From Corylus avellana (taxonomy: Eukaryota; Streptophyta; Magnoliopsida; Fagales; Betulaceae), in the NCBI RefSeq assembly GCF_901000735.1, contig NC_081547.1, positions 13,552,091 through 13,616,090 on the forward strand: a DNA stretch of 64,000 nucleotides, written 5' to 3'. The notes under the pieces were generated by a model, which made no database searches, was not told the DNA's origin, and was given only the letters and a program-made list of their open reading frames with translations. Positions 53,160 to 63,393 of this stretch are shown in pieces. Position numbers and translations under genes: made by a program. Each line of letters opens with the position of its first letter. Within the stretch, counting starts at the first letter, position 1.

Positions 53160-53590
53160 AGGTGTATACTCCTTAATCTTCTCCTTGGAAAAGTGTGTCT
53201 ATTCTAGAGGCTTAAGGGTCTATTTATAGGCCTTAGGAATACTCTAGAAACCGTAAAAATCGTAAGGTTTGAGCCCTAGTTCACACTAAGTTACAAAACT
53301 TTAAAAGTTGCACTTTCTATATCAAGGTTGGCAGCTGTCTTGGCCATCACGCACGGGTGCACTTGATCGCAGCTCCCTTGCGATTGATCACACTACCAGA
53401 GCCTTCCATATTCTCAAAATAGCTCTTTTATGCTCAAGACTTCCGAAATTGCTTCTTGTTCTTCCAATGACCTACAAAATCAAGGAAAACACATAAAAAA
53501 ACTAAAATGGCATAAATTAGCTAAAACTAAAGGATTAAAATATGTAAGTTAAGGGCTAAAAATATGAATATTTTAGCACTTAACAATCAT

Positions 53591-54203
53591 TCTACCGGCG
53601 TTTCATCAAAGGCTTTAGCACCATTGTTACTCCCATGACAGAATGCCTTAAAGGAGGAACGTTTAAGCCGACAGAAGAAGCCCAAAAGAGCTTTGAACTT
53701 CTCAAGCAAAAAGTAACAGAGGCACCAATCCTTATGCTTCCAGATTTCTCCAAAGTATTTGAAATTGATTGCAATGCTTCTAGTCTAGGAATTAGTGGTG
53801 TTCTCAGCCAAGAAGGCAAACCAATTGCCTTTTTTAGTGAAAAGCTCATTGACTCCCGATAGAAGTATTCCACCTATGACAAAGAATTCAATGCTCTTGT
53901 TCGTACCTTGGAGCATCGAACACAGGCCACTAAGCATAGAAAGCCAATGGTTTTCAAAAAAGGATATTTGGTATGGATTCATCTTCGAAAAGAACATTTT
54001 CCAACAAAACGACAATCTAACCTCCTAGCACGAGCATATGGTCCTTTCAAAGTGCTCCAACGCGTTGGAGAAAATGCTTACAAGATTGAGCTCCCTGGAG
54101 AGTATGGTGTATCTGCCACTTTCAATGTATGTGACTTAGCACCATATGAAGAAATTGAAGAGACCACGGACTTGAGAGCAAGTCCTCATCAACCGGGGGA
54201 GTA
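53591..54203 (+). pseudogene. D2 RNase H fused to post-integrase region
   Basis: After E2 the frame resumes ([20 protein letters not shown]), then [20 protein letters not shown] and [12 protein letters not shown], with a TAG at 53860-53862. RNase H normally has CDAS; here it is CNAS, so the catalytic Asp is lost. At about 53930 (LVRTLEHRTQATKHRKP) the sequence jumps to the end of pol: VWIHLRKEHFPTKRQSN, GPFKVLQRVGENAYKIELPG and VSATFNVCDLAPYEE. All of integrase is missing. No clear chromodomain is visible. Confidence 0.8.
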
Positions 54204-54885
54204 TGACACAGGTGTGTCCAACAAGAGTCTATTAACAATTTCCCCAGCTTCAGTCCAAATAAGTCCACAAGCCCAACAGAATTACAAGGCCCATATTGAA
54301 GAAATCCTACTGGAGTCTTGAGAGTTCTAGTGAGTTCAAAAACATCATAGTCATCCATTACTTCATCATTTCGAAAACATTTCTAGGTCTAACTTGAAGT
54401 TCAGACTCTTATCTTTCCAACCAAAAAGGTTTCAAATCATTTGGAGGCGCATGCCAAAAGTTATGACCGTTTCAAGTGGAGTGGTCAGCCTTCTCGAGAT
54501 TATGCATTAAGGTGGCTGTTTGTCCCCCTGTTCGCTGCCCCACGAATTAGTGATTGTTTTCTGCCATTATTACTTGTTTAACTTCATTAGATGCTTATCA
54601 TATGCTTAAAGGGTTGTTCTAAGCTTATATAATACTTGTGTGTATAAGTGTAGGTCAGACTAGAGTATTGTGTTAAAAAACCAGCCTTTGGCTTTTGAGA
54701 GAAGATTCTCCTTGTATCTTCGTATCTCTTTGGTGTGAGCCTTAGAGTGTTGAGTGTTCTAGTTTTGTATCCCTTGTTATAATCCTTTGGGTGGTGATAT
54801 TCTATATCCCTTTGGTGTTATCTCTTGGGTGGTTTGAGTGTGAATTTGTGTACTTGTTTTCCATCTCCATTTTTGTCTGGTATCA
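54204..54885 (+). repeat. D2 3' LTR
   Basis: 682 bp, TGACACAGG...GGTATCA. Around 54399 it shows the intact site (ACTTGAAGTTCAGACTC) in which C1 and C2 inserted in the 5' LTRs. Confidence 0.85.
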
Positions 54886-55450: not shown

Positions 55451-55730
55451 GGGGTTAATAACTTTTTTGGTACTTGGGTTTTGAGGTTTTTTAATTGTCC
55501 CCCTTAGGTTTTAAAGCATGACTAAACTAGTACCTCAGATTTCGAATAAACCGAATAGCCACCTCCGTTAGTTTTCATCAATTCCCCACTAATGGTATTC
55601 CACATAATTGCCATGTAAGCACTGTATATTGCGACACGTGTCCACTTTTTTTTTAAAAAAAAAAACAAAAACTAAACTACACAGTAAATCCACATCGGAA
55701 TCCCATTAAATGAAAAATCACCAATTATTT
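55451..55730 (+). repeat. MULE left terminal inverted repeat
   Basis: It starts GGGGTTAATAACTTTTTTGG and ends AAAAATCACCAATTATTT. It pairs with 63103-63393 in inverse orientation. It probably contains the transposase promoter, as in other MULEs. Confidence 0.88.
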
Positions 55731-55938
55731 GACATTTTCCCCTTAGGGTTCAAACTAACCGGTTTTCCCCAAAATTTTATACAATTTCGATTTAGGGTTG
55801 TTGGATTGATTTCCATTTCAATTTCAATTTCACTTTTGATTGGAAGTAGGCTGGGTTTGGTTTTCGATTAGTCTAAGTTTGAGTTTGAGGATTATTGTGG
55901 GTGGAATGGGTCGACTTAGGGTTGTTGGATTCCCATCG

Positions 55939-56035
55939 GTAGTCTGGATTTGGCTTTCGATTGGTGGTAGTCTGGGTTTGGCTTTCGATTGGATGTAGTC
56001 TGGGTTTGGCTTTCGATTGAAGTAGTTAGGGTTTG
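55939..56035. repeat. 28-bp tandem repeat in MULE
   Basis: Units start at 55939, 55967, 55995 and 56022 with the core GTAGTCTGGGTTTGGCTTTC; the last unit is degraded. It lies between TIR and first exon. Confidence 0.8.
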
Positions 56036-56526
56036 ACTTTGAGGATTATTGTGGGTGGAGTGGTCTGGGCTATTGTTGAATCGCAACGGGCGGCCTGATT
56101 TGAGCACGTTGGCAGAGACCTTGTACGGGAGGAGTAAAATGAGACCACCTAGGAGAAATAGAGCTCGAGGTATGTACTTTTGCTTTGCCAAACAAAATTC
56201 CCGACCAGTGGGACGTTTTTTTAATAGTATTTAGCATATGCAATTGAGAGGTTGCATTCACTTTTATGGTTGAATTTTTTTTAGTTGTCTCTTAGTGTAG
56301 TACTTTTTGTCTGTTCCGAAGCCCAGTATAAAGTTCACCTTTTTTTACATCGAAAACTGGTTCTTGTGTTGTGTTGTGCTGGTTGTCAATGAAATATTGT
56401 TCGAGTTTGTCTGCTTTTGAAGACTTCTTTATTGTTGTGGGGTTGTATAGTGGGTGGCTAATGTTTGAGTTTGTCTACTTTCGAAGACTTTTTTTTATCG
56501 TTGTGGGGTTGTTTGGTGGGTGGGGA

Positions 56527-57776
56527 CAGGGGCATATCTAGGGGGGTAAAGAGGGGGCATATGCCCCCTCTCGACCCCTAAAAATTCTCCTTACCTCTTG
56601 GTAAAAATTTTTCTTATGCCCCTCAGCCGTGTTAATGCCCCCTTTTAGCCATAAGTATGCCCCTTCGGCCATAATTATGCCCCAGTTATCAGGGGCAAAC
56701 GATTGATGTAGTGTTTCTGCTACAGTTTTCAATTACATGATGTTTTAGGTTTAGGTTAGAATGTTAGATGAAATGAGGAAGAAGATGATGGCAAATTGAC
56801 AATCATGCCCTTTAATTAAACACATCGTTTAAATAAGTGACCTTTGGACTGTTTCTAGGCCAATTGACAATCATGTCCTTGCTATTTGGACTCTTTGTGA
56901 ACCAGAACAAAATTTTAGCTTCTTTCTTTTTAACACTAAAGTGGGCATTGGAAAGAAGAAAAAAAAAACATCAATGGGCCAGTGGATTTGGTTGAGAGTC
57001 TTGAGACACCAAACTCTAAAGACTATAAAAATCCAAGCCACTACATACTTCAAACATCACAACACAACATGATTAAAAACAACAGCCTTTTCTCCAAATA
57101 AATAAATAAAGCAAACAAACAAACAAAAACCAAAACTCACACTTAAAAAAAAAAAAAAAAAAAAAAGCCTAAAGTTTAGTAAATATGTAATCTAATTTTT
57201 AGATTTAGATTTAAACTGTTCTTTTCAATTGATTGTTTTAATTTTTATATTGCTATTAATTCAGTTTATTCTTGATAATAACTTCAACAAAAAAATTGAG
57301 GGATGTAATCATGTAAATATGTAATCAAATTTTTAGATTGAGATTTAAATTATTCTTTTCAATTGATTGTTTTAATTTTTATATTGCCATTAATTCAGCT
57401 TATTCTTGATAATTTTTTTTTTTATATTTAATTATTTATGAATTTATATAGTTTTTGTTTTATATTTTAATTGTATAAATATGTAATTGTAGTTCTCTGA
57501 GATTATAGATAAAAACAATGATTCTATCGAGCTCCAATCAAATTCTAAACGACCTCGTTTTGAAGTAGATTTAACAAATTTGCTTGAAAATCTTGTTTAA
57601 GAAAAAAAAAAGTACGATTATAATCCTAGTGATAGAGACCAAATCCGAAGAGTATATCTAGAAATAAGAGCTTGTCATTTTTTATATTTAATTATTATTT
57701 TTAATATTTTAATTAATTTTATTTTTTTATTCATAAAAAAATGCCTCCATGAGTGAAAATCATGGATCCGCCACTG
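56527..57776 (+). mobile_element. hAT relic in the MULE first intron, 8-bp TSD
   Basis: It starts CAGGGGCATATCTAGG and ends CATGGATCCGCCACTG (inverse CAGTGGCGGATCC, a classic hAT terminus). The perfect 8-bp duplication GGTGGGGA lies at 56519-56526 and 57777-57784. Within it, 57523-57680 encodes SNSKRPRFEVDLTNLLENLV, a stop, then YNPSDRDQIRRVYLEIRACH, resembling the N-terminal part of TTF-type zinc-finger hAT transposases. The rest of the transposase is absent. 57178-57410 is a tandem duplication (about 134-bp period). Confidence 0.9.
57178..57410. repeat. 134-bp tandem duplication inside the hAT relic
   Basis: GTAAATATGTAATCTAATTT at 57179 and GTAAATATGTAATCAAATTT at 57313 start two similar copies, each containing TCTTTTCAATTGATTGTTTT and TTTATATTG. 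Confidence 0.8.
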
Positions 57777-58605
57777 GGTGGGGACCAATGTGCATGATAG
57801 ATGGAGTTGGTACGTAGGTATGTAAGTGTCTCACATGGCCATTATTTTGTTCATGCAGGATCACCACTGACAAGATCCATTGATCTCGTTATTTACCATC
57901 ATGGATCATTTAGTAGACCACGTATGGAGTATGTAGGGGGGGAATTGATGACTTTTCCTGACTTAGATATTTTCTATGTTATGCTACTCAGACATTACAA
58001 TCCTACCTTGGTTATTAGTATGGAAGGGTGCCTTCTCTCTATTACAAGGTTGATGATAATGATGAATTTTGTGGACTTACGAGGAGAAATCATGTCAAAT
58101 AGATGTTTAGGGTGGTTGAATGCGAGTTCAAAAACTTTCATGTGTTTGTAGATCATGGAGATGTAGAAGTTGGTGAAAGCGAAGGAGATGTAGGGTTGAA
58201 GGATGTAGTTTTTGTAGTTGAAGAAAAAAAAATGGAGTGGTAGAAGATGATGGAGTTATAGATAGTGAACAAAGTCTGGCCATTGTTGAAGTTGTAGACT
58301 ATAAAAATGATGGAGTTGGAGAAGTTGATAAAAAAACTGATGGAGTTGTAGAAGAAGGTGTAGTTCGACCTAATGAACATAGTTGGGCTATTATTGAAGT
58401 TCTAGCTGGTTGTAGGATTAGTGAGAAAGATGAGGGATATGGAAACGGATTTGTGAATTATGAGGATACTTATGAGTATGAAGAGGTGCTTATGAACGAG
58501 GTCAAAAAGGAGAAGGTTGATCAAACTGTGAAGCAGATAAGAAAACAAAAGAAGCAGCAAAAGAAGATTGAGCAAACTGCCATGGATAAGAAAAAGGAGA
58601 AGATG

Positions 58606-58695
58606 TAGTCCACGGCTAGGCAGTCCACAGCTATGCAGTCCACAGCCAGGCAGTCCAAAACAAGGCAATCCAAAACCAGGCAATCCAAATCTAAG
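58606..58695 (+). repeat. 15-bp tandem repeat coding (STARQ)n in the MULE transposase
   Basis: Six units of CAGTCCACAGCCAGG-like sequence with a 15-base period give in-frame Ser-Thr-Ala-Arg-Gln or Ser-Lys-Thr-Arg-Gln. Stops flank it. The minus-strand Leu/Gly/Pro frame over it is a shadow. Confidence 0.8.
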
Positions 58696-60960
58696 TAGCC
58701 TCCAAGTCATGGAGATGAGAAGATGAACATGATGACGTAGAAATTCAACCTCTTCCATTAGTTGATTTTGAAGATACTGATGGAAATGAGGACATTTATG
58801 TCAGAAAAAATGAAGAAATTCTACGGGTGGTTAGGAAGGCTGCATCAAAGTGGTTCCAGCAATGGGGTGTATCATCGTCAGCTTTTAAGGAGGTTAACAC
58901 TGGAAATGGTAAATTCAAACAACTGAATGAAGAGGGTGTTGAAAGTCTTGAACTATGCAGTTTAGAAAGTGAAGATGAGGGTGATGAAGGTACAACCAAA
59001 AGAAAAAGAAAAAGAATGAAGTATTCGGAATGGCGTGGGTTGAAGAACCTCAAAGAGAAGGTAGAAATATATGTGGGACAGTTATTTGCAAACCCATCGG
59101 AGTTTAAAGAGGTATTACAGCTGTATGCAGTACATAATTCATTCAATTACACATACGTGCATAACGAGAAAAATGGCGTTTCAACCCATTATAAGAAAAA
59201 TTGTGGATGGAGAGTATATGCGTCATGGAAGAATAACACCAAATACTTCCAAATAAAGACATTATTTGATGTTCATAACTGTGGAAGTCATTATTACAAC
59301 AAACAAGCTTCAATCAAGTGGGCAGCACACCGATACATTAATAGCTTTAGGGATCAAGCTAATCGGAAGGCAAGTGATTTGAAAGAGGCGATTCGAAGGG
59401 ATTACAATGTGGAGATGACTTTGCTTGCTTTCTACCGTGCCAAAAGAATGGCATTGAAGTTGTTAATCGGGTCGGATGATGAGCAGTACAAACTTACAAG
59501 AGCGTATTGTAGTGCAATACGTAAGTAGAATCCCGGTAGCTCAGCTTATATACAAAGAGATGGTGTATTCTTCCAAAGGATATATGTTTCCATAGCTGCT
59601 TGTAAGCGGGGTTTCTTAGCTGGATGTAGGCCGATGATATGTGTGAACGCATGCTTTATGAAAGGTCAGCATAGTGGCCAGCTACATGCTGCCATTGCAC
59701 GGGATGGGAATTATGACATCTTCCCAATTTCATATGCTCTATGCGAGACTGAAAGTAGAGCCATATGGACATGGTTTTTTAACACTTTGTTGGAGGATAT
59801 TGAGAATCCAAGGGAGCACACATGATCATTTATATCTGACAGACAAAAGGTAATAACCTGACATCCTAATTGAATGAATATTATTAATTTGTGAGAACAT
59901 TAATATTTAACATGTGTTAATTAAATTGTGATCTTCTTACACAGGGACTGATGGAAGCATAGAGTATTTGATGCCTGATGTGGAGCACAAGTTATGTGTT
60001 AGACATTTGCATGTGAACTTCAAGAACAAGGGTTACAAAGGCAAGGAATACAAGGATGCATTGTAGGGTGCAGCTCGAGCATCAAATGCAAATCAATTCA
60101 AGTACAACATGTCTGTGATAAAAGGAATGGATATTGCAGCCCATGATTATATTGTGAAGGTGAACCCAAAGATGTGGTTAAGGCATGCTTTCAGAGAGTA
60201 CAGCTACAGTGACATACTTCTGAATAATACAGTTGAGACTTTCAATTCATGGGTACTTGAAGCTAGAGATCAATCCATTCTTACTGGCATGGAGATGATA
60301 AGGCGGCAATTGATGAACCAGATTAGCCAAAAAAGAAATGGAGCGGCAACGTCAACCAATACTATTTGCCCTAAGATTGTGAAGAAGTTAGACAGGAACA
60401 AGTCAGAGGCTATGAATTACATCTCCCACTAGAGTAATGACTTGACATTTGAGGTTGACCACAGTCATGATGCTAGGAGGCTTGTCAATCTGAATTTAGG
60501 AACATGTGGATATGGCAGGTGGCAGTTGAATGGGATTCCATGCCCTCATGCTTGCTATGCAATATATGCAAATAGGGAAAGTCCAGAGAAGTGTGTAAGT
60601 AAGTGGTACTCAAAGGATACATATAAGAAGCCATACGCATTTAGCGTTGGGCTAATGCCTGGCCCTAAAGATTGGGCTATTCCCAGTGATGAGGAACCCA
60701 CACTACCACCATTACCCAAAAAACAATGAGGTAGGCCGAAGAAGGTGAGAATAAGAGGAGCTGATGAAAACGAGCCTAATGAAAGTGTTAAGGTTAGTTA
60801 AAAGAGGTATGATGTACGGTGTGGAAACTACAATCAGCTGGGCCACAATGCTAGGAGTTGCACCCAACCACAGAATCCATAGGAAGATATGGCCAAAGAA
60901 GGCTAAGAAGACAAAGCCGAACACCGACACTGAGGTGAGTTTGTACATAATATTCTACGG

Positions 60961-61996
60961 TAGTTTGACATTTGACATTTTAAATATTTTTGAATTAAAT
61001 TAAAGTTTTTTTTATTATATGGTGTGACAATGAGGTACCTCACAGACAACTCATGCAACAAACATACCCCAACAAGCTGCCACCCCGAGTGGACAAAGTA
61101 GGAGTCCCATCAAGATTGAAGGTAGAAAGTCAGCAAGGCTACAATCAATGTGAGTTCCTGAATTTCGTTTGTTGTGTAGTAGATTGGACTGCCATATAAG
61201 GATAAATTGTGTGCATGGTACTAATTGTATTGCCTATGTTGATGCAGGTTAGGCCATCACAGCTAGTGGGGCAACACTAACCTCATCCACTACCAACACA
61301 ATTTAGGCCAACACAATAGGGATTTTTGTGAATACAAAAATTGTGTAATTTTTTGTGATCTTCTTATGTGATGTCCAACATTAACAAAACTTACTTGTTA
61401 TGTGATCTTTTTATGTGATGTCCAACATGAGAGTACAAATATGCCCCTTATGGTTTTTTTGACAATGTGGGTTAATGGACATTTATGCCATATTTGTTTT
61501 GTTTGAATTTATGGCATAGTTGTTTGTTTGATGTTGGGATGTAGATATGGTCCAGATTGTGAACGTACTTGTTTATTTTTGAATGTACATGATATGGTCC
61601 ATCTTGTCGAAATGCAGTAATACAAGTACTTCTCTAGTTGGAATTTATGCCCATTCTTTCAAGTTTTCAATTAGGTCTTGTTGGATGATAAAGATGCATC
61701 AAATGTGTTATTAGGTCTTGTTGGAAGATAAAGATGCATCAAAGATGCATAAAGTTTTCAATTCTTTCAAGTTTGCAATTAGGTTTCAAACCAGAAACAT
61801 TTACAAATAACTCAAACACAAGACACTTTTTCAAACAAAAAACAAAAAATAAACAACTAACAAGCAATGCTTTTTTAATTTTTTAAAGCATTAATGCCAA
61901 TCCACTAACATAAATACAACATTACCAAAAAAAAAAACACATTACAAAATACAATATTAATCCACTTACATAAATACAACATTATAAAATACTCAT
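60961..61996. other. MULE region between the convergent genes
   Basis: 61040-61310 probably holds the last transposase exons (splice-like ATG|TGAGTT near 61149 and GATGCAG|GTTAGG near 61247). Beyond that it is AT-rich and non-coding, with a 40-bp tandem repeat (61671-61745, TTAGGTCTTGTTGGATGATA) and a repeated GTGATCTTYTTATGTGATG (61359, 61402). No other gene is seen. Confidence 0.5.
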
Positions 61997-62639
61997 TTAC
62001 TTGATTATTGCAATAATGTCAATCAACACAATTATCAGCCATGACAACAATAAACCAAACATGAAAAATTTTTCTCTTGCCCTATACATATCCTTCTCAT
62101 TTTCTATGTAGGCAAGTATTTCCAATTGTTTATCATCATCCTTCTCTAGCTGATTTACCCTTGCAATGTAACCCTCACGTTCAGTCTGAAGGTCATCACG
62201 TTCACTCCCAAGGTCTTTCACCATTGCCAAAAGATGAACATTTTCATTCTCCAGCTCTTTAATCTTAACCAACAACGCATGAATAACTTTCATACCCCTT
62301 TCACAAATTAGTTTGTCCATCAATTTGAAAAATCGGCATGCTACTTTTCTCTACATATTTTATATAAAATATCAATCAAACCAATACACACACCTTCTAC
62401 ATGGTCATTAACACTTCAATTTTGAAAAACATCATGTGTGTTGATGTAAAACAGGTATAGATTTGTGGTGCAATGAAACTACTCACGCTAGAATCATAGT
62501 TAGCACAGCCCCAAAATCTGCTTCCAAGGTTTTCTGGAGTCCAGGATGTCTTTAAAGGTGCAGGTAACGAGCAATAACAAACCAAGCACATCTGAGTACA
62601 GTCCACCGAAGTACACCTAGATCCAGATGATAACTTCAT
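61997..62639 (-). CDS. GRF zinc-finger, coiled-coil, membrane-anchored protein of the MULE
   Basis: Two exons: 62639-62487 (51 codons from ATG) and 62350-61997, with a 136-bp intron (donor GTGAGT, acceptor ATATGTAG). Splicing keeps phase and gives about 168 residues. The join completes a GRF-type zinc finger: CYCSLPAPLKTSWTPENLGS (residues about 21-40), RFWGCANYD, and, after the junction, ACRFF with the fourth Cys. A heptad-rich coiled coil follows (LLVKIKELENENVHLLAMVK, GSERDDLQTEREGYIARVNQ). Near the C-terminus a hydrophobic segment (FMFGLLLSWLIIVLIDIIAI) is a likely membrane anchor. It resembles plant At4g04775-like GRF proteins. It lies convergent to the transposase, with its 5' end facing the right TIR. 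No stop or frameshift is seen, unlike the transposase. Its function is unknown. Confidence 0.75.
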
Positions 62640-63102
62640 ATGCTGCTCCTAATGAAAATAGCGTGAACCCTAGCTTAATTTGGGTATTGTAATCACCAAA
62701 AAAACCAAAGGTGGAATTTGGCTTAAGTTTGAGTACATACCTTATCCAAGCCGAGAGAAGGTTCTTTTCCATTGAGTGCCTGTTCTCGACCTGATGATAT
62801 TTTCTTCTCTGCGCCTTCCAATGCGAGTTCTCACTATCAACGGAGATCCCTTACGCGTGCAACACGAGCGTCTGCGTCTGCTAACCAAATTGAAGCTCGA
62901 TTTGGGGACAAACGTTTTAAGCTCGATTTAACTGGGTGTGTAGCTGTGGGTTGACGAAGAAGAAGGAAAGGATCGGAAGGAAACCTAGCTCGACATTCCC
63001 GTACCTACCTACATGTGAGTCTGATTGTAGCTCGTGGTCTAGGGTTCATGTGATTTAGAAGCAAATGAAGAGGGAAGCTTCGGGTTGAAGAGAAAGGAGA
63101 TG
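62640..63102 (-). promoter_or_regulatory. Upstream region of the MULE GRF gene
   Basis: On the minus strand a likely leader intron runs from donor GTATGTACTC (near 62741) to acceptor TTTTCATTAG just before the start codon. An upstream ATG at about 62772 (MEKNLLSAW) would hit a stop after splicing and is out of frame with the GRF protein, so it would be a short upstream frame. The remaining sequence to the TIR has no recognised promoter box. Confidence 0.4.
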
Positions 63103-63393
63103 AAATAATTGGTGATTTTTTCGTTTAATGGGATTCCGACGTGGATTTACCGTGTAGCTTAGTTTTAGTTTTTTTTTAAAAAAAAAGAAATAAAAATAAA
63201 AGTAGACGTGTCGCTATATAAAGTGCTTACGTGGCGATGACGTAGACTACTGTTAGTGGGGAATTGATGGAAACTAACGGAGGTGGCGATTTGGTTTATT
63301 CGAAAATCTGAGATATTAGTTTAGTTATGTTTTAAAATCTAGGGAGAAAATTAAAAAACCTAAAAGCCTAAATACTAAAAAAGTTACTAATCC
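63103..63393 (-). repeat. MULE right terminal inverted repeat
   Basis: This is the inverse of 55451-55730: starting from 63393 on the minus strand, GGATTAGTAACTTTTTTAGT, through CGCCACCTCCGTTAGTTTCC, to AATCACCAATTATTT. Confidence 0.88.

What the first reader, a model, noticed from the sequence alone, without database searches (positions are those of the whole stretch)
55451..63393. A MULE with a second, convergent gene for a GRF zinc-finger membrane protein
Seen: long inverted repeats, a plus-strand transposase and, facing it, a spliced minus-strand gene with a GRF finger, a coiled coil and a C-terminal hydrophobic anchor. Known: maize MuDR has two convergent genes, mudrA and mudrB, each starting near a TIR, and most other MULEs have only the transposase. 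Inference: this element built a MuDR-like two-gene plan with an unrelated partner, or captured a host GRF gene. The GRF frame is clean (168 codons over two exons) while the transposase has at least six disablements, which suggests recent capture, separate constraint, or use by the host or by related elements.
Basis: partly seen in the sequence, partly recalled or inferred. Interest (0 to 1): 0.8.

Follow-up and report, generated by a model that had tools for sequence, protein, structure and literature searches.

The report
Two-gene plant transposons with zinc-finger partner
In what is most likely the hazelnut genome, several families of Mutator-like jumping genes carry, besides their transposase, a facing second gene for a small zinc-finger protein with a greasy tail, so part of a gene set that annotation lists as ordinary plant genes looks like a standing helper gene of transposons.

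Summary
In detail: 82%-identical TIRs (55452-55730 / 63103-63393), a plus-strand MULE transposase with six in-frame stops, and a facing spliced minus-strand GRF gene. The GRF gene is less clean than described: most sister copies start in a further 5' exon whose ATG is ATA here, and this copy's finger is below Pfam's cut-off. It is not a single recent capture. The genome is most likely Corylus avellana. Of 193 transposase loci, 83 have a facing, downstream GRF gene within 9 kb and none another arrangement (0.42 expected); of 150 other MULE-domain loci 1 does, of 150 hAT loci none (lists capped). The plan spans families whose transposases are down to 33.5% identical, with one intron position and phase. 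Divergences of the two genes correlate and both show weak purifying selection. A young family has near-identical two-gene copies. Relatives with GRF finger and C-terminal hydrophobic segment occur in several angiosperm groups. Best reading: a long-held MULE accessory gene, mudrB-like in plan, probably a DNA-binding, membrane-anchored helper. Function and other species' genomic context are untested. New variant of a known kind.

The parts
55452..55730 (+). left terminal inverted repeat
   Evidence: 82.2% identical to the right TIR over 292 columns
57801..60940 (+). MULE transposase gene, decayed (N-terminal part near 57801-58151, DBD/MULE/SWIM part 58719-60940)
   Evidence: Pfam traces; match to L033 at 57870-57968 and 58746-60940 with six in-frame stops
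61997..62350 (-). GRF gene, last exon: end of the GRF finger, predicted coiled coil, C-terminal hydrophobic segment
   Evidence: helix 84-176 in the model of the Alnus relative
62351..62486 (-). intron inside the GRF finger, phase 0, GT-AG
   Evidence: same place and phase in L029, L031/L032 and L033
62487..62648 (-). GRF gene, middle exon with most of the GRF finger (internal ATG at 62639)
62741..62800 (-). GRF gene, first coding exon; start codon ATA here, ATG in 13 of 18 copies
   Evidence: matches the N terminus of P0001, RefSeq LOC132188439
63103..63393 (-). right terminal inverted repeat
56527..57776 (.). later nested insertion, hAT-like ends, 8-bp duplication GGTGGGGA on both sides
   Evidence: sequence; family name recalled

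Best explanation
This is a decayed copy of a two-gene MULE. The second gene, convergent to the transposase and read from the right-TIR side, encodes a small protein with a GRF zinc finger, a predicted coiled coil and a C-terminal hydrophobic segment. Shown: the gene sits facing the transposase in several MULE families of this genome, within flanking inverted repeats where these could be read, and over the long run has been kept under weak purifying selection. Inferred: it moves with the element and is a transposition helper in the way of mudrB. Proposed mechanism (about 0.3 on its own): the protein dimerises through its coiled coil, sits tail-anchored in the ER or nuclear envelope, and its GRF fingers hold single-stranded or gapped DNA at the excised ends or target, favouring reinsertion or repair at the nuclear edge.
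For: Pairing: 83 of 193 transposase loci with a downstream convergent GRF gene within 9 kb, 0 in other arrangements, 0.42 expected after 200 random shifts; 1 of 150 top PF10551 loci and 0 of 150 hAT loci convergent. With the L029 lists added, 94 of 199, and 1 upstream same-strand. Young family: 32 of 47 transposase loci paired; C2 and C11 copies 100% identical over 406 aa of the transposase, and their GRF genes print as 100% identical with a one-base length difference. 15 of 20 loci fetched by their GRF region also show the transposase, all convergent. Same intron position and phase in the four families read. Distances of the two genes correlate: r 0.74 within the family (15 loci), 0 of 2000 permutations reach it. 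One-ratio omega below 1 for GRF (0.77, 2dlnL 6.45; with L033/L034 0.64, 23.0) and transposase (0.70, 37.6; 0.54, 143.4). Flanking inverted repeats of 216-841 bp, 87.5-97% identical, in L029-L032 and a 546-bp one in L034. GRF fold: NEIL3, ZCCHC4 and 5u6z (an AP lyase; APE2 by recall) by sequence profile, NEIL3 and ZCCHC4 by fold, best E 0.014. Hydrophobic segment after the finger in 44 of 64 GRF-motif proteins held, in 38 of these within 20 residues of the C terminus, and in the window, L033, L029 and L032 proteins.
Against: 110 of 193 transposase loci have no listed GRF gene, and from the GRF side 110 of 194 loci are unpaired and 1 has a same-strand neighbour; lists are capped. Even in the young family 15 of 47 transposase loci (one of them at 99% identity) and 8 of 40 GRF copies are unpaired. 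L035, of a related 554-aa class (48% to L032), shows no GRF gene in the 4.1 kb held after its last transposase frame, so the gene is not universal. Deep families may have gained it twice. Within-family omega is not far below 1 for either gene. L033's own TIRs were not resolved in the stretch held. No expression, localisation or activity data; the membrane tail is a hydropathy call without a control set. [quoted passage not shown]
Confidence: 0.75

Rival explanations
1. Repeated capture: MULEs took up members of a host GRF gene family several times, and the copies ride along without a job.
For: Extra ORFs of MULEs are often taken to come from the host (passages of PMC6446971; section of PMC9168764). 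Many GRF loci are unpaired (110 of 194). L035 shows no GRF gene in the stretch held.
Against: One orientation and position in all 83 paired loci, same intron place and phase in four families, correlated divergence, omega below 1. Chance capture would not favour one orientation.
Confidence: 0.14
2. The GRF protein is an anti-silencing or regulatory factor (as vanC of the Arabidopsis Hiun element) rather than a helper of the reaction.
For: Extra genes of plant MULEs include an anti-silencing factor (PMC6446971 passage). The gene evolves faster than the transposase: Ka/Ks about 0.38 against 0.16 between WIN and L033, with Ks near saturation.
Against: A GRF finger binds nucleic acid in its studied relatives (recalled) and a hydrophobic tail would be odd for a chromatin factor. 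No direct test.
Confidence: 0.25
3. The GRF gene is a host gene with the MULE inserted around or beside it by chance.
For: RefSeq lists such genes as hazelnut loci (P0001, P0007, P0010, P0014).
Against: 83 paired loci in one fixed arrangement; within flanking inverted repeats in the window, L029-L032 and L034; 40 listed copies of one GRF gene at 95-100% identity.
Confidence: 0.03

Closest known systems
MuDR of maize (mudrA/mudrB)
   Same: Long TIRs, transposase and a second gene transcribed the opposite way; as described in passages of PMC6446971 and PMC9168764.
   Different: Partner here is a GRF finger protein with a hydrophobic tail; homology to MURB not tested.
Abermu type II elements (grasses, PMC9168764)
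   Same: Two genes, ORFR opposite to and downstream of the transposase before the 3' TIR; ORFR evolves faster, Ka/Ks 0.39-0.56 (sections read).
   Different: ORFR is described as of unclear function; 'grf' has 0 occurrences in the main text. Sequences not compared here.
Plant MULE groups with antisense PMD genes (Dupeyron et al. 2019, PMC6446971, Table 1)
   Same: Second gene in antisense in several plant groups (section read).
   Different: Plant mobile domain, not GRF; 'grf' has 0 occurrences in the main text.
Hiun/VANDAL (vanB, vanC)
   Same: Plant MULE with extra genes (passage).
   Different: Not compared by sequence; no GRF finger mentioned in what I saw.
Plant 'GRF-type' / 'At4g04775-like' proteins
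   Same: Same finger, and in 44 of 64 held a hydrophobic segment after it.
   Different: Annotated as plant genes, with genomic surroundings in other species unread; here tied to a transposon.

Membership tests
Mutator-like element (MULE) | MuDR/MULE transposase domains | tested here: met
   PF03108 over cut-off; PF10551 26.1 bits, below its 27.6, in one fragment of the broken copy; both over cut-off in L029 and L032
Mutator-like element (MULE) | long terminal inverted repeats | tested here: met
   279/291 bp, 82%; 216-841 bp in L029-L032, 546 bp in L034, not resolved in L033
Mutator-like element (MULE) | 8-11 bp target duplication | tested here: inconclusive
   9 T on both sides of L029 (low complexity), 8 of 9 in L030, unclear in window and L032, right end of L031 cut off
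MuDR-type two-gene plan | second gene convergent to the transposase, before the other TIR | tested here: met
MuDR family proper | second gene homologous to mudrB | not testable with these tools
Abermu | transposase and ORFR related in sequence to Hvu_Abermu | not tested
GRF zinc finger (PF06839) | score over Pfam cut-off 25.9 | tested here: met
   27.8-46.0 bits in P0001, L033, L029 and L032; not met in the window copy itself (20.4) nor in P0003 (15.6)
Tail-anchored membrane protein | single C-terminal membrane segment | tested here: inconclusive
   hydropathy only: 44 of 64 proteins, window 3.02; no localisation data

The most novel reading that the evidence does not exclude
The GRF, coiled-coil, hydrophobic-tail protein is the ancestral second gene of a large angiosperm MULE lineage, includes the unexplained ORFR of grass Abermu elements and many of the plant 'At4g04775-like' proteins, and anchors transposition to the nuclear envelope; a membrane-anchored helper of a DNA transposon would be new to my knowledge.
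Probability: 0.17. Interest if true: 0.85.

Novelty: new variant of a known kind. Interest (0 to 1): 0.62.

Why it matters
Second genes of plant MULEs are an open puzzle: mudrB is described as needed for insertion but of unknown function, and whether the ORFRs of Abermu elements share one origin is left open by their authors (PMC9168764). A partner with a recognisable nucleic-acid finger and a likely anchor gives a testable handle, and near-identical two-gene copies in hazelnut offer a system. It also suggests that at least part of a protein family listed as plant genes is transposon-borne and should be treated so in gene counts and expression studies.

Tried and rejected
Single capture in this copy only: rejected. 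GRF gene in all MULEs: rejected (1 of 150 top PF10551 loci; L035). Branch-wise omega by ancestral states was not available; pairwise Ka/Ks and a one-ratio codon model were used instead, which cannot separate old constraint from recent decay. Ks between families is near saturation and differs between the genes (GRF 0.88, transposase 1.93 for WIN-L033), so deep ratios are rough. Rows dropped before counts: L013 and L028 from the GRF alignment, L010 there too (exon mostly missing); L023a/b from the pairwise set and L023 (near-duplicates of L021); GRF copies with fewer than 100 and transposase copies with fewer than 300 readable codons (19 and 15 copies kept); stop codons masked. Literature: 10 searches listed no paper that I could see ties a GRF finger to a MULE; I opened four papers, and the seven papers (GRF zinc finger, transposon, plant) were seen as a listing only. 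The library holds open-licence PMC papers, so a report elsewhere or in Repbase is not excluded. A plasmid-collection search gave no match and was uninformative. The name Corylus avellana rests on three contig lengths, not on a label; P0001's contig length equals none that I saw (3,428 bases off C7).
Full report
What is there. The window lies in G000:C7:13552091-13616090 of a 370-Mb genome with 12 contigs. Three of its contig lengths (36,653,616; 50,950,907; 30,273,198) equal those of the contigs of Corylus avellana proteins P0007, P0010 and P0014, so the genome is most likely a hazelnut assembly. The element runs from 55452 to 63393. Its TIRs align over 292 columns at 82.2%. The transposase fragments show PF03108 over Pfam's cut-off, and PF10551 and SWIM below theirs, with six in-frame stops and a frameshift against L033. 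A 1.25-kb insertion with hAT-like ends and an 8-bp duplication sits between the left TIR and the transposase (family by recall).

Copies of the same family. A DNA search with 62000-63393 gave 61 matches. I fetched 20 regions of 10 kb around GRF-like matches (L021 and L023 overlap). 15 of 20 also show transposase matches, in each case facing the GRF gene; the other five (L012, L019, L021, L023, L025) show GRF without transposase in the stretch held, and L010 keeps only the first 15 residues of its finger exon. These loci were chosen by their GRF region, so this count is not unbiased.

Less biased pairing. I listed transposase loci by two protein queries and GRF loci by two other queries, then paired them by strand and distance. 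83 of 193 merged transposase loci have a GRF locus downstream and convergent within 9 kb; none has one in another arrangement; 200 random shifts of the GRF loci give 0.42 on average. Seen from the 194 merged GRF loci, 83 are so paired, 1 has a same-strand neighbour and 110 have none. An earlier count with a 12-kb limit on 130 transposase hits gave 63 downstream-convergent, 2 same-strand at over 9 kb and 65 without. Of the 150 best PF10551 loci, 1 is downstream-convergent and 1 upstream on the same strand; of 150 hAT loci none is convergent and 1 is upstream on the same strand. Adding the L029 lists gives 94 of 199, with 1 upstream same-strand and 104 without. The lists are capped by the tool and were typed from its tables, so the paired fractions are probably lower bounds.

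Several families, one plan. By the codons aligned to the window transposase, L033 is 58.5% identical, L029 43.0% and L032 33.5% (local alignments, so somewhat high; one search gives 26-28% for the L032 class over its 269-aa piece). All six loci L029-L034 carry the facing GRF gene; flanking inverted repeats enclose both genes in L029-L032 and L034, while in L033 the TIRs were not resolved. In the four families whose sequence I read (window, L033, L029, L031/L032) the intron lies inside the finger in phase 0 at the matching place. L029 has 9 T on both sides, L030 a duplication of 8 of 9. In the L029 family two copies, on C2 and C11, are 100% identical over 406 aa of the transposase, and their GRF genes print as 100% with lengths of 606 and 607 bases. 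32 of 47 transposase loci at 84% identity or more are paired and 15 are not, one of these at 99% identity; of 40 GRF copies listed, 32 are paired and 8 are not. This points to recent movement as a two-gene unit, with some copies lacking one gene or beyond the lists. L035, of a class 48% identical to the L032 transposase, shows no GRF frame or motif in the 4.1 kb held after its last transposase frame, so the gene was lost there or gained elsewhere.

Selection and co-inheritance. Pairwise DNA distances of the two genes correlate (17 loci, r 0.93; 15 family loci, r 0.74; 0 of 2000 permutations as high in either). Within the family the median Ka/Ks is 0.58 for GRF (171 pairs, 19 copies) and 0.53 for the transposase (105 pairs, 15 copies). 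A one-ratio codon model gives omega 0.77 for GRF (2dlnL 6.45 against 1) and 0.70 for the transposase (37.6); with L033 and L034 added 0.64 (23.0) and 0.54 (143.4). The window copy itself against 16 others gives Ka/Ks 0.60-1.59, near neutral. So both genes look constrained over the long run and decaying in most copies; special recent constraint on this GRF copy is not borne out.

The protein. The finger passes Pfam's GRF cut-off in P0001, L033, L029 and L032 but not in the window copy or P0003. A profile of 42 relatives finds NEIL3 (4e-11), ZCCHC4 (1e-4) and 5u6z, an AP lyase (0.003; APE2 by recall), in the PDB. The AlphaFold2 model of the Alnus relative (mean pLDDT 86.8, pTM 0.52) has three strands and one helix from 84 to 176; Foldseek's best PDB matches are NEIL3 (E 0.014) and ZCCHC4, none below 0.001. 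A strongly hydrophobic 17-residue stretch follows the finger in 44 of 64 GRF-motif proteins held, in 38 of them within 20 residues of the C terminus, and in the window, L033, L029 and L032 proteins (2.44-3.25). The profile search found 101 proteins; those with names come from, among others, Corylus, Alnus, Quercus, Castanea, Hibiscus, Arachis, Daucus, Salvia, Saponaria, Arabidopsis, and the monocots Ananas and Urochloa; one is named At4g04775-like, and many are unnamed metagenome entries. A search with the pineapple protein gave 7, three of them new. Their genomic surroundings could not be read here.

How it may work. That known GRF fingers bind single-stranded DNA is recalled knowledge. From that, the predicted coiled coil and the tail, I propose a dimeric, membrane-anchored helper that handles DNA ends or the target site at the nuclear periphery. 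This is inference, at about 0.3. A regulator or anti-silencing factor is the main rival for function; repeated capture the main rival for origin.

Known relatives. The survey of Dupeyron et al. (PMC6446971; passages and one whole section read) names mudrB, mutB, vanB/vanC and, in its Table 1, antisense PMD genes; 'grf' does not occur in its main text. The Abermu paper (PMC9168764; passages and four sections read) describes a convergent ORFR of unclear function, without detected similarity between distantly related plants, and asks whether it has one origin. The plan here is the same; sequence identity of the partner could not be tested. Two further papers that a search listed hold GRF and MULE in unrelated senses in the passages seen (PMC8774480, PMC11734081).

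Noticed in passing
window 56527-57776: Nested insertion with CAGGGGCA...CCACTG ends flanked by the 8-bp duplication GGTGGGGA; looks like a hAT element (name recalled).
   Followed up: partly
L029 (C2:22719136-22729135) and C11:11652991-11658154: Two copies of a GRF-bearing MULE family identical over 406 aa of the transposase and nearly so over the GRF gene; probably recent transposition.
   Followed up: partly
L035 5414-6297: A gene that looks like a glutathione S-transferase (by eye) follows the transposase of a GRF-less MULE class; host neighbour or capture not decided.
   Followed up: no
P0037 (Corylus avellana): A predicted TIR-type resistance protein (Roq1-like, partial) carries a GRF finger at its C terminus; integrated domain or a gene model fused across a transposon.
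   Followed up: no
P0001, P0007, P0010, P0014: RefSeq lists these GRF proteins as uncharacterized hazelnut genes, though they are close relatives of the MULE second genes (P0001 99% over its last exon to the C7:9557077 copy).
   Followed up: partly
L023 (C5:126524-136523): Two near-identical truncated copies in tandem: two GRF genes about 4.5 kb apart, no transposase match in the stretch held.
   Followed up: no
P0008, P0015, P0021: Metagenome proteins named septal ring factor EnvC match the plant GRF-protein profile at 48-50% identity to its first sequence; probably plant DNA misnamed.
   Followed up: no
window 53584-54321: Reading frames left of the element look like a Ty3/gypsy pol remnant (by eye, recalled).
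   Followed up: no
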